DNA of 64,000 nucleotides from Melioribacter roseus (lineage in GTDB: Bacteria > Bacteroidota > Ignavibacteria > Ignavibacteriales > Melioribacteraceae). Each line of letters opens with the position of its first letter. Positions within the stretch are counted from its first letter, which is position 1. The stretch spans positions 1-64,000 of the forward strand of contig DYHH01000012.1 of assembly GCA_020724265.1 (NCBI GenBank). The letters are read 5' to 3'. This document shows, one piece after another, positions 1 to 3,235 of this stretch. The notes beneath the pieces are model-generated. The model saw only the letters and a program-made list of their open reading frames with translations. It did no database searches and was not told the origin of the DNA. The translations under genes and the position numbers were made by a program.

Positions 1-4
1 ATTA

Positions 5-56
5 TGACATTTCTAAAGAGTTTTACATACTGACATTTCTAATGAGTTACTACACT
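5..56. repeat. Two tandem 26-bp direct repeats
   Basis: Both units begin TGACATTTCTAA, followed by A or T and GAGTT; unit one is 5-30 and unit two 31-56. The array reaches the window edge, so more units may lie to the left. The position next to DnaA-box-like sites suggests iteron-like elements, but no protein is known from this sequence to bind them. Confidence 0.6.
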
Positions 57-135
57 TATCAACAATTACCAAATACCTATATTTATTAGTCTTTTATAGA
101 TATTTAAAATAATAATAAATACAATACTGTTACTA

Positions 136-144
136 TGTGGATAA
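136..144 (-). promoter_or_regulatory. DnaA box
   Basis: TGTGGATAA on the plus strand is the exact complement of the consensus box TTATCCACA. It lies in the gene-free region downstream of dnaA. Confidence 0.65.
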
Positions 145-403
145 CCCTTCTTTTTTAACAAATTATTACAAAATCAAACAAAAATATTTCTTCAAAATGT
201 TGATATTATATTAACAGCAAGAAGTTGTCTAACAGCTCTTTAGTATTTTATATTTATTAACAAGTTGTCTATATTCAATTAACAATATATCAACACATTA
301 TTAGATAAAATAGGGAAATGAAAAAAGTATATCCAGAATAAATAACTTTTTGTTCGTAAATCAGTTGATTAAAATAATATAAGAGGAAGAAAGATAGTGG
401 TAG

Positions 404-1834
404 TTAAATACTCATTTCAATTTTGTTTTTTAACTCTTCTATCGACTGCTTTATACGAGAATCTTTAGTAATCATTTCTTCTATTGTGTTGTGGGCATGA
501 ATAACGGTTGAGTGATCTCTCCCCCCGAAATGTAAACCGATTGTTTTGAGAGAAGATTTGGTAAGTGTTTTGGATAAAAACATTGCAGTTTGACGGGCTA
601 ATACAACCTCTTTCTTGCGATTTTTTTCCCGGACTTTGTTTTCGTCTACTTTAAAATGTTCGCAAACGACATTTGTTATATACTCTATTGAAATATTAAC
701 ATGTCGCTTGGTTGAAATTTCTTTAACGGTTCGCTTGGTTAATTCGTAATCAATTTCTTTTCCGTTTAAAGAGGAATTTGCAAGTAGCTTAATTAAACAG
801 CCTTCCAACTCTCTAATATTGGAGGTTATATTGTGAGCAATATATTCAAAAATTTCATTAGAAAGATTAATGCCGAAACTATTGCTTTTGTTTTTTAGAA
901 TAGCAATTCTTGTTTCGAAATCCGGCGGTTGAATATCAGTTGTTAATCCCCAGGAAAATCTTGAAATTAATCTTTCGTTTAGCCCTTTAAGTTCTTTTGG
1001 GGGTTTATCGCTGGAAAGGATAATCTGTTTTCCTGATTGATGAAGTGTGTTAAAAATATGAAAAAACAAATCTTGCGTTTTTTCTTTGCCTATTAAAAAT
1101 TGAATATCATCAATGATTAAACAATCCATTGATTTATATCTGTTGGAAAAGTCGTTTACGCTGTTAGATTGAATTGCCTCAACAAACTCTACCGTAAACA
1201 GATCTGAAGAAAGATAAATAACTTTTTTGTTTGGATAGTACTCTAATATTTTGTTTCCAATTGCTTGAATAAGATGAGTTTTTCCTAAGCCAACCCCTCC
1301 GTAAATAAACAACGGATTAAATGAAGTCTCACCCGGGTTTTCGCCGACAGCATAAGCGGCAGCCCGCGCAAGTTGGTTCCCTTCTCCTTTAACAAAATTC
1401 TCGAAGCGATATCTTGGGTTTAAAGAAGTTTCGTGAGGTTCTTCGGTCGGGGAAACAACAGGTTGGTTGGAAATTTCATCTGTTATTTTTTTCTTTTCCT
1501 CATCTTTAATAATTACATTTATTTCATCATCATTCTTTTTGTCATCTAAAACAGTATAAATTAATTTCCCGCTGTCACCCAACACCTCGTTAATGGTTTT
1601 ATTAATGAGTGTGTTATAATGCTCTTCAATCCATTCAACAAAAAATCCGTTCGGCACTTGAACTTTAAGAGCGCTGTCGGAAATTTCGACGGGTTTAATT
1701 GGTAAAAACCAGGTGTTATACGTAATGTGGGGCACGCTTTCTTTAATAATTGATAAACAATCTTTCCATGCAGTTGTGCAATCGGTATGAATGTTGATGG
1801 TTCTTAAAAAGGATTTGTTGTTAATCTTATCCAC
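404..1834 (-). CDS. dnaA: Chromosomal replication initiator protein DnaA
   Basis: DnaA binds origin boxes, melts the origin and loads the helicase. All four domains are visible: the N-terminal oligomerisation domain (about 15-95), a polar variable linker (about 96-138), the AAA+ ATPase core with Walker A GGVGLGKT (179-186) and Walker B LIIDDIQF, and the C-terminal DNA-binding domain with the signature GGRDHSTVIHAH (437-448). The length of 476 aa is normal. The chosen start is GTG at 1834, and it overlaps a perfect DnaA box (1827-1835), which suggests autoregulation. No clear Shine-Dalgarno sequence precedes it, so a start shifted by a few codons is possible. The gene stands alone: dnaN, recF and gyrB are absent, and the divergent neighbour is an asparaginase. 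Confidence 0.98.
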   Translation of the reverse strand: MDKINNKSFLRTINIHTDCTTAWKDCLSIIKESVPHITYNTWFLPIKPVEISDSALKVQVPNGFFVEWIEEHYNTLINKTINEVLGDSGKLIYTVLDDKKNDDEINVIIKDEEKKKITDEISNQPVVSPTEEPHETSLNPRYRFENFVKGEGNQLARAAAYAVGENPGETSFNPLFIYGGVGLGKTHLIQAIGNKILEYYPNKKVIYLSSDLFTVEFVEAIQSNSVNDFSNRYKSMDCLIIDDIQFLIGKEKTQDLFFHIFNTLHQSGKQIILSSDKPPKELKGLNERLISRFSWGLTTDIQPPDFETRIAILKNKSNSFGINLSNEIFEYIAHNITSNIRELEGCLIKLLANSSLNGKEIDYELTKRTVKEISTKRHVNISIEYITNVVCEHFKVDENKVREKNRKKEVVLARQTAMFLSKTLTKSSLKTIGLHFGGRDHSTVIHAHNTIEEMITKDSRIKQSIEELKNKIEMSI

Positions 1835-1835
1835 A
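1827..1835 (+). promoter_or_regulatory. DnaA box overlapping the dnaA start codon
   Basis: TTATCCACA is a perfect consensus box. Its last bases form the complement of the GTG start of dnaA, so DnaA bound here could block its own translation start or promoter region. Autoregulation is an inference from the position. Confidence 0.6.
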
Positions 1836-2260
1836 ATTATTATTTCAGCAAGAGGTTTTATAGTTTGACAAAATAATTAACTAATTTAACACCGGCAAAA
1901 CTTTTTCAACAACTTACTAACATTAAACAAAGGCTGCAAGACATTATAAAACAAGCCGTTATAAAAAAGAATTATGTCTTGCCAACAAAAGAAAGAATAT
2001 ATAAATCAGAAAAACAAAAATAGAGCACCACGTGAAACGTTTCACAAAAACAAGTTGTCAACAAGTTATCAACATACGAGATCGGTCTCTTAGGCGAGTC
2101 AATAATATGATAATGAAATCATTTCTGCAAATTAAATCTTTCGCTTTTTTGTAAGTTGTTAATAAAAAACAAAATAAAATTTTTGTATAAAGAAAATTCT
2201 TCAACAAGAGATATTTTTGTAATAGAGTAAAAAGTAAAATTAATAAGGAAATGTAACAAG
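1836..2260. promoter_or_regulatory. Divergent dnaA/ansA intergenic region, candidate oriC half
   Basis: This gene-free stretch of about 425 bp separates the divergent genes dnaA and ansA. It holds two tandem 11-bp units (ACAAGTTGTCA then ACAAGTTATCA, 2050-2071) that place the DnaA-like 9-mers TTGTCAACA (2055-2063) and TTATCAACA (2066-2074) one helical turn apart. A parS-like palindrome lies at 2029-2045. An AT-rich tract at about 2100-2235 could be the unwinding element. It must also carry both divergent promoters; I could not assign these confidently. Confidence 0.5.
2029..2045. promoter_or_regulatory. parS-like palindrome (half-sites in swapped order)
   Basis: The sequence CACGTGAAACGTTTCAC contains the perfect 14-bp palindrome GTGAAACGTTTCAC (2032-2045). 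The usual ParB site is a palindrome of GTTTCAC joined to GTGAAAC. Here the same two half-sites are present but in the reverse order, and the left flank of CACGTG does not match. ParB binding is therefore uncertain. Confidence 0.35.
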
Positions 2261-3235
2261 ATGAAAAATATTCTTATTGTATTTGCAGGCGGAACATTTT
2301 CGATGAAGATTGACGAAGAAACCGGCGGAGCGATTCCTTTCTTTCATGGTGACCAACTTTTGGAAATGATTCCTAATGTAAGAAACCTTGCACAAATTTC
2401 TATTCATGATTTTGGAATGTATCCCGGGCCACATATGACACCCGAATTAATGCTTGAGCTTTCGAAAGAAATTAAAAAAAGAATTAATCAAAAAGGGGTT
2501 GATGGAATAATAGTTACACACGGAACCGACACACTTGAAGAAACAGCATATCTCTTAGATCTTACAATTAAAACAAATAAACCAATAGTTGTAATTGGAG
2601 CAATGAAAACTTCTTCTGAGCAGGATTGGGACGGGCCGAGAAATTTGTTAGACGCTATTCATATTATAAACTCTACAAACAGTTATGGGATGGGAGTCTT
2701 AGTTTGTTTGAATGGTGAGATTAACGCTGCAAGCGAAGTTACAAAAACACACACAGAAGATATTGAAACGTTTCACAGTCTAGATTTTGGAGCGCTCGGA
2801 TTTGTTGATAGAGGAAGAGTAATTTTTAATAGAATGCCGAGAAAACTTGAAACAATAGAGACGGATAAAATAAATTCTAATGTTGATTTAATTAAAGTTC
2901 ATGCCGGAATGGGCGATAAATTTTTTAAATTTTCTGCTGATTCCGGTGTCGAGGGGATAGTAATTGAAGCAATGGGAGTAGGTAATGTTCCCCCAACTGC
3001 CTTTGAAGGAATTAAATACGCAGTTGAAAAAGGAATCCCGGTAGTTTTAACCTCGCGCTGTCCTGCCGGGGAAACACTTGATATTTATAGTTATCCGGGC
3101 GCAGGAAAATGGTTAAAAAAATTAGGAGTAATTTTCACCGATTATTTGAACGGACAGAAAGCAAGAATAAAATTGATGCTCTGTCTTGGTTTAACTAAAG
3201 ACATAAATAAACTTCGAGAATTAATAGAAGAGTAA
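2261..3235 (+). CDS. ansA: Type I (cytoplasmic-type) L-asparaginase
   Basis: It hydrolyses L-asparagine to aspartate and ammonia. Both family signatures are present: the N-terminal threonine motif AGGTFSM (9-15), where most members have GGTI, and HGTDTLEET (87-95), which carries the second catalytic threonine and aspartate. A lysine at about 115 follows in AMKTSSEQ. There is no signal peptide, and 324 aa matches the cytoplasmic class. The ATG start follows a purine-rich stretch (AAGGAAATG). The next gene starts one base after the stop, so the two are probably co-transcribed. Glutaminase side activity cannot be judged from sequence. Confidence 0.93.
   Translation: MKNILIVFAGGTFSMKIDEETGGAIPFFHGDQLLEMIPNVRNLAQISIHDFGMYPGPHMTPELMLELSKEIKKRINQKGVDGIIVTHGTDTLEETAYLLDLTIKTNKPIVVIGAMKTSSEQDWDGPRNLLDAIHIINSTNSYGMGVLVCLNGEINAASEVTKTHTEDIETFHSLDFGALGFVDRGRVIFNRMPRKLETIETDKINSNVDLIKVHAGMGDKFFKFSADSGVEGIVIEAMGVGNVPPTAFEGIKYAVEKGIPVVLTSRCPAGETLDIYSYPGAGKWLKKLGVIFTDYLNGQKARIKLMLCLGLTKDINKLRELIEE

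What the first reader, a model, noticed from the sequence alone, without database searches (positions are those of the whole stretch)
1..2260. dnaA lies between two AT-rich regions rich in DnaA-box-like sites: possible bipartite origin
Perfect boxes occur at 136-144 and 1827-1835 and one-mismatch or related 9-mers at 56-64, 198-206, 287-295, 2055-2063 and 2066-2074. Clusters on both sides of dnaA recall bipartite origins. dnaN and recF are absent and an asparaginase gene takes the divergent place.
Basis: partly seen in the sequence, partly recalled or inferred. Interest (0 to 1): 0.5.

Follow-up and report, generated by a model that had tools for sequence, protein, structure and literature searches.

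The report
Replication origin flanking dnaA, two-part
The start of this contig is very likely the chromosome's replication origin, split in two halves around the dnaA gene as in Bacillus, and beside a pair of DnaA sites it carries a palindrome, widespread in this bacterial order, that looks like two back-to-back halves of the site bound by the segregation protein ParB.

Summary
Both AT-rich gaps around dnaA carry more DnaA boxes than shuffles, as do the same gaps in relatives. The unwinding half is the dnaA-dnaN gap: box, degenerate second box and TTA trios, window 144 down to about 104. The missing dnaN is an artefact. The contig ends in an insertion sequence (1-54), and its 17-bp target duplication (55-71) recurs at the start of contig C15, which continues dnaN-recF-dciA. 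Same-genus G002 has uninterrupted asparaginase<- ->dnaA->dnaN. GC skew flips at dnaA in a same-family genome but is uninformative in the same genus.

New here: upstream of dnaA, 86 of 93 distinct Ignavibacteriales loci (0 of 279 shuffles) carry a fixed module: two co-oriented DnaA boxes 2 bp apart, then after 9-10 bp GTGRAAM-(N)-GTTYCAC (window 2032-2074). In a phylum draw it is in 39 of 40 in-order genomes and 19 of 355 others. Its arms match the ParB half-site heptamer GTTYCAC, inside-out. Near-canonical parS pairs lie elsewhere. LacI-type regulators are absent from four genomes with the exact palindrome. My reading: a B. subtilis-type bipartite origin with an added regulator site, possibly for ParB; binding is untested.

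The parts
1..54 (+). End of an ISNCY/IS1202-like insertion sequence, read outward; the contig breaks inside the element
   Evidence: Same end at 6 further contig ends at 94-100% and a second end type (81%) at 7; related element with ISNCY transposase in relative G039
55..71 (.). 17-bp target-site duplication; the other copy is C15:55-71, 63 bp before the dnaN start codon; contains a DnaA-box-like TTATCAACA (56-64)
   Evidence: sequence
104..144 (-). Unwinding element (BUS-like): DnaA box 144-136, degenerate second box 135-127, TTA/TAT trios about 126-104
   Evidence: Box + half-box + trio in 29 of 35 dnaA-dnaN gaps under 470 bp (25 of the 60 gaps are longer and were left out), 5 of 700 mono-shuffles; alignment
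254..262 (+). DnaA-box-like TTATTAACA in the dnaA-dnaN gap
404..1834 (-). dnaA
   Evidence: TIGR00362 547 bits, cut-off 343.9
1827..1835 (+). Perfect DnaA box overlapping the predicted GTG start of dnaA
   Evidence: TGTGGATAA at the matching place in several relatives
2032..2045 (.). Palindrome GTGAAACGTTTCAC: two GTTTCAC heptamers back to back
   Evidence: Only exact copy in the 3.77-Mb assembly; column counts
2055..2063 (+). DnaA-box-like TTGTCAACA, inner box of the module, 9 bp from the palindrome
2066..2074 (+). DnaA-box-like TTATCAACA, outer box of the module, 2 bp from the inner box
2157..2165 (-). DnaA-box-like TTATTAACA in the upstream gap
2261..3235 (+). Asparaginase-family gene, divergent neighbour of dnaA in many relatives
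   Evidence: PF00710 and PF17763; synteny

Best explanation
This is the chromosomal origin, bipartite in the Bacillus subtilis manner. The unwinding half is the dnaA-dnaN gap: DnaA binds the box at 136-144 and its weaker neighbour and runs onto the TTA trios, opening the duplex. The second half is the asparaginase-dnaA gap, where a fixed module (two co-oriented DnaA boxes plus the inverted heptamer pair GTGAAAC/GTTTCAC at 2032-2045) gathers DnaA and, I propose, a second protein that tunes initiation or dnaA expression. ParB is the leading candidate for that protein. An insertion sequence has landed between the unwinding element and dnaN without breaking either. Shown: sites, spacing, conservation, synteny, the insertion. 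Inferred: DnaA binding, unwinding, and the identity and role of the second protein.
For: Box enrichment in both gaps. In relatives, TTRTYMACA 118 times in 33 upstream gaps against a shuffle mean of 3.7, and 98 in 35 dnaA-dnaN gaps under 470 bp against 4.2. Unwinding element in 29 of those 35. Module in 86 of 93 loci, 0 of 279 shuffles; 39 of 40 in-order genomes against 19 of 355 outside. G011 skew: the 9 samples from -1366 to -45 kb negative, the 11 from +34 to +1669 kb positive. A parS pair (one mismatch each) on C14, joined to C7 by a 16-bp duplication. Melioribacter roseus authors placed the origin between dnaA and dnaN (PMC3534657, passages).
Against: In same-genus G002 the skew is noisy: 9 of 16 left samples negative, 18 of 26 right samples positive, cumulative minimum about 0.6 Mb from dnaA. 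The window itself has mostly negative skew where positive is expected. No binding, footprint or marker-frequency data. The unwinding and module patterns were written after seeing the same alignments.
Confidence: 0.85

Rival explanations
1. On what the palindrome is: a ParB site made of two half-parS heptamers in inside-out order, so that ParB sits beside DnaA and couples segregation to initiation.
For: In the 52 spacer-0 modules the left arm is GTTYCAC (reverse complement) in 51 and the right arm in 48; GTTCCAC and GTTTCAC are the heptamers that P. aeruginosa ParB prefers (PMC10419367, passages). parS-like sites of several of these genomes show the same T/C exchange. The right arm stays while a 1-bp variable spacer appears in other loci. 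One strong ParB per genome in 24 of 24. In V. cholerae chromosome II, ParB2 binds an origin element through a half site (PMC3688505, passages).
Against: In 31 of 34 spacer-1 modules the left arm ends in A, so only one perfect heptamer remains. The T/C place is also the free place of the DnaA box TTWTNCACA (recalled), so it is not specific to parS. B. subtilis ParB shows no half-site binding and Caulobacter ParB relatively weak binding (PMC10419367). The half-site order is opposite to parS, so clamp loading may not occur. Heptamer matches are cheap after many comparisons.
Confidence: 0.4
2. On what the palindrome is: an operator for another regulator (CRP/FNR, Rex or an unidentified HTH protein) controlling dnaA.
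For: TGTGA-N6-TCACA fits the CRP-type consensus, and TTGTGAA-N4-TTCACAA resembles Rex sites (both recalled). Palindromic form. Exact TGTGA-N6-TCACA sites exceed the reversed control in some genomes (9 against 0 in G030, 8 against 1 in G020), so a CRP-type regulator may be at work in them.
Against: The spacing between arms changes by 1 bp between groups of loci; the 5' flank is T in 41 and C in 11 of 52, and A4 is G in 10 of 52, so TGTGA is not the conserved unit; the TGTGA-N6-TCACA sites listed away from dnaA have other centres, and the window genome has 2 against a control of 2. Presence of Rex or CRP proteins was not searched.
Confidence: 0.35
3. On what the palindrome is: a LacI-family operator.
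For: TGAAACGTTTCA with a central CG is typical of LacI-family sites such as Cra (recalled; one search lists a paper on Cra holding this string).
Against: No LacI HTH in G005, G013, G021 and G031, all 99-100% complete; each has the exact palindrome.
Confidence: 0.03
4. On the origin: the boxes are only dnaA autoregulation and chance AT-rich matches, and the origin is elsewhere.
For: Skew in the genus does not point to dnaA; box 1827-1835 overlaps the dnaA start.
Against: Conserved unwinding element on the other side of dnaA, skew flip at dnaA in G011, parS pairs within about 115 kb of dnaA in G000 (inferred join), G002 and G011.
Confidence: 0.08

Closest known systems
Bacillus subtilis bipartite oriC (incAB-dnaA-incC-dnaN) with basal unwinding system
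   Same: Box clusters on both sides of dnaA; unwinding element with box pair and trios in the dnaA-dnaN gap (BUS and bipartite oriC described in PMC6669920 and PMC10721633, passages)
   Different: Asparaginase gene upstream; an order-specific palindrome module; boxes often TTATCAACA/TTATTAACA
Melioribacter roseus predicted oriC (PMC3534657, passages)
   Same: Same family as the nearest named relatives; origin placed in the 303-bp dnaA-dnaN gap with DnaA boxes and a skew transition
   Different: The passages seen do not mention an upstream half or the palindrome; the supplementary figure was not seen
parS and half-parS sites (P. aeruginosa, PMC10419367, passages)
   Same: Heptamer GTTYCAC
   Different: Arms in inside-out order, beside DnaA boxes just upstream of dnaA
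V. cholerae chromosome II origin 39-mer bound by ParB2 (PMC3688505, passages)
   Same: Would be a ParB half-site inside an origin
   Different: Initiator RctB, not DnaA; different half-site; secondary chromosome
IS1202 family, long-duplication group (PMC10132070, passages)
   Same: ISNCY transposase, about 1.45 kb, duplications of 16-17 bp
   Different: Transposase and length were read from a relative's element; the inside of this genome's element is not on the contigs seen

Membership tests
B. subtilis-type bipartite oriC | DnaA-box clusters on both sides of dnaA | tested here: met
   window and relatives
B. subtilis-type bipartite oriC | dnaN follows dnaA | tested here: met
   G002, one of 59 relatives' loci with dnaN within 1.2 kb after dnaA; other loci end first, lack a dnaN hit, or have it further away (L049 and L065); in the window's genome across an IS
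B. subtilis-type bipartite oriC | Both halves needed for origin activity | not testable with these tools
   Needs genetics
Basal unwinding system | Co-oriented box pair next to DnaA-trios | tested here: met
   29 of 35 gaps under 470 bp, 5 of 700 mono-shuffles; second box degenerate in the window; pattern written after seeing the alignment
Basal unwinding system | DnaA opens DNA there | not testable with these tools
   Biochemistry needed
Chromosome origin | GC-skew minimum at the site | tested here: inconclusive
   Met in same-family G011; unclear in same-genus G002; not tested genome-wide in the 56-contig assembly
Canonical parS | TGTTNCACGTGNAACA (recalled) | tested here: not met
   The 2032-2045 element has the half-sites in opposite order; parS sites with one mismatch are on C14
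LacI-family operator | A LacI-family protein in every genome with the site | tested here: not met
   No LacI HTH in 4 of 16 genomes that have the palindrome at up to one mismatch
IS1202 family | ISNCY-type transposase and 16-28 bp duplications in the long group | tested here: met
   NF033594 369.8 bits, cut-off 250, on the relative's element; 16-17 bp at 7 of 7 pairs

The most novel reading that the evidence does not exclude
In a whole bacterial order the main chromosome origin carries a fixed DnaA-box-pair plus inside-out parS module, to which the segregation protein ParB binds directly to control DnaA, a DNA-level coupling of replication start and segregation.
Probability: 0.33. Interest if true: 0.8.

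Novelty: new variant of a known kind. Interest (0 to 1): 0.5.

Why it matters
It gives a two-sided origin map for the Ignavibacteriales and exposes an origin element, widespread in the order, with rigid geometry next to DnaA boxes. If ParB binds it, replication-segregation coupling would act through origin DNA itself, which can be tested with one gel shift.

Tried and rejected
The palindrome as canonical parS: rejected, parS-like pairs occur elsewhere. As LacI operator: rejected by absence. As a pair of DnaA boxes: unlikely, because in the 51 loci the arms keep C at the place where the neighbouring boxes mostly have A (48 and 41 of 51); in the spacer-1 loci box 2 often has C there, so this argument holds only for the first group. 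As an asparaginase operator: unlikely, because 0 of 34 spacer-1 modules have the asparaginase in their locus. As a site for a second ParB paralogue: only weak, partial second hits in G000 and G006. The one-mismatch copy inside the asparaginase gene (2763-2776) is not kept in G002 (by eye). G002 skew sampling gave no clear minimum. The window-wide box search showed no enrichment. Counting the 14-mer genome-wide is uninformative: 22 places against 21 for the reversed control in 24 genomes; only the place beside dnaA singles it out.

Paper searches: none holds the exact 14- or 16-mer, seven hold the inner 12-mer.

Full report
What is there. The window is contig C7 from its first base. dnaA (404-1834, minus; TIGR00362) has an asparaginase-family gene divergently upstream (2261-3235). 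Both gaps around dnaA are AT-rich: GC 0.213 at 56-403 and 0.261 at 1836-2260, against 0.342 in dnaA.

They exceed shuffles in each gap with the relaxed motif TTRTYMACA, which I chose after seeing them (3 against 0.10 and 4 against 0.11), and with the stricter one-mismatch count (2 against 0.14 and 2 against 0.11). Leaving out the box at the dnaA start, the strict upstream count is 1 (96 of 1000 shuffles reach it). Twenty-one AT-rich pieces from elsewhere in the window average 0.10 (all). In relatives the relaxed motif occurs 118 times in 33 upstream gaps (window included; shuffle mean 3.7, largest of 60 shuffles 9) and 98 times in 35 dnaA-dnaN gaps shorter than 470 bp (mean 4.2, largest 10); 25 of the 60 dnaA-dnaN gaps found are longer and were left out of this count. 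Sequences in these sets are related, so sites are not independent.

Why dnaN seemed absent. dnaN is at C15:135 onward, followed by recF and dciA. Window 1-54 and the start of C15 are the two end types of one insertion sequence. Fourteen contig ends carry such ends, and they fall into 7 pairs by exact duplications of 16 or 17 bp; 91 combinations were tested and only these 7 matched. C7 start pairs with C15 start (17 bp, containing the box-like 56-64) and C7 end pairs with C14 start. A related element in G039 encodes an ISNCY transposase, and duplications over 15 bp mark the long group of the IS1202 family (PMC10132070, passages). In same-genus G002 the order asparaginase<- ->dnaA->dnaN is uninterrupted. 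The element sits between the unwinding element and dnaN and leaves both in place.

Origin evidence. The dnaA-dnaN gap carries a box, a second degenerate box and TTA trios in the order of the basal unwinding system (PMC10721633 and PMC6669920, passages; the strand sense of the trios is from my own knowledge of the 3'-GAT-5' consensus). A pattern for it, written after seeing the alignment, matches 29 of 35 gaps and 5 of 700 mono-shuffled gaps. In complete same-family genome G011, twenty 12-kb samples show one block of 11 positive skews from +34 to +1669 kb and one block of 9 negative skews from -1366 to -45 kb, so one flip is at dnaA and the other near the opposite pole. In same-genus G002 the picture is poor: 9 of 16 left samples negative, 18 of 26 right samples positive, and the cumulative minimum about 0.6 Mb away. 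The window has mostly negative skew where positive would be expected. A parS pair, one mismatch each, lies at C14:12616 and 12694, which through the C7-C14 duplication is roughly 95 kb from dnaA if the element is about 1.45 kb; in G002 a pair lies about 114 kb away and in G011 about 32 kb. The authors of the Melioribacter roseus genome placed the origin between dnaA and dnaN (PMC3534657, passages).

The upstream module. I took 93 distinct dnaA loci: the window plus 92 others, deduplicated by the end of dnaA. The pool was the 80 loci kept of 101 and 18 relatives' loci fetched; one search had found DnaA in further genomes that I did not fetch at length. In 86, two boxes within 3 mismatches of TGTTGATAA, 2 bp apart, are followed after 9 bp (one case 10) by GTGRAAM-(N)-GTTYCAC with at most 2 mismatches. 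Dinucleotide-shuffled upstream regions gave 0 of 279. The pattern was derived from these same loci. Five of the 7 misses (L046, L108, L115, L128, L137) have the full inverted element but one poor box; L058 and L060 have only degenerate arms. The element begins 209-281 bp before the dnaA match; L072 has a second copy at -723 and G016 two copies 458 bp apart. Fifty-two modules have no spacer and 34 have one variable base (C 19, T 12, G 2, A 1). In the spacer-0 form the only frequent change is A/G at place 4 (10 of 52) and its mirror T/C at place 11 (3 of 52). In the spacer-1 form the right arm is GTTYCAC in 34 of 34, but the left arm ends in A in 31 of 34.

In a phylum-wide draw of 395 genomes, the composite pattern (boxes plus GTGRAA, at most 2 mismatches) is in 39 of 40 in-order genomes and 19 of 355 others; at most 1 mismatch, 36 of 40 and 1 of 355. 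The reversed control pattern is in 6 of 40 and 5 of 355 (my counts from the table; the one in-order miss is G388). The outside hits thus exceed the control somewhat; whether they lie near dnaA was not examined. At up to one mismatch the 14-bp palindrome is in 17 of 24 genomes, and in 16 of these one match lies just upstream of dnaA; the total number of places (22) is no higher than for the reversed control (21) to any useful degree, so it is the position that matters. In G000 it is present once exactly, with one 1-mismatch copy in the asparaginase gene.

What binds it. The arm GTTYCAC equals the two half-parS heptamers that P. aeruginosa ParB prefers (PMC10419367, passages), and parS-like sites of several of these genomes vary at the same place. 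Each of 24 genomes has one strong ParB; the window genome's ParB aligns with solved ParB and Noc chains. Against ParB: the inside-out order, the weaker left arm in spacer-1 modules, the fact that the variable place is also free in the DnaA-box consensus (recalled), and absent or weak half-site binding by B. subtilis and Caulobacter ParB. LacI-type repressors are excluded as a universal binder. CRP- or Rex-type binders are disfavoured by the changing spacing and the unconserved TGTGA but not excluded: CRP-type sites exceed the control in some genomes, and the proteins were not searched for. I give ParB 0.4.

Verdict. The bipartite origin is well supported by sequence and comparison, and is a known kind of structure. 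The module, widespread in the order, is the unexpected part: its existence is shown, its function is inferred.

Noticed in passing
window 1-54 and 13 other contig ends of G000: Seven copies of one ISNCY/IS1202-like element break this assembly; their 16-17 bp duplications suggest seven contig joins.
   Followed up: yes
window 1827-1835: The predicted GTG start codon of dnaA lies inside a perfect DnaA box (TTGTGGATAA on the coding strand); a similar box stands there in several relatives.
   Followed up: partly
window 2763-2776: A second, one-mismatch copy of the palindrome lies in the asparaginase coding sequence; not conserved in G002.
   Followed up: partly
L072 upstream of dnaA, and G016:C25:55901 and 56359: The upstream module is present twice, 455-458 bp apart.
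   Followed up: no
G000:C14:12616-12709, G002:C1:38851-38924: parS doublets lie on opposite sides of dnaA in the two same-genus genomes (in G000 through an inferred join), suggesting inversion around the origin.
   Followed up: partly
window 5000-57000: GC skew mostly has the sign opposite to that expected for this side of the origin.
   Followed up: partly
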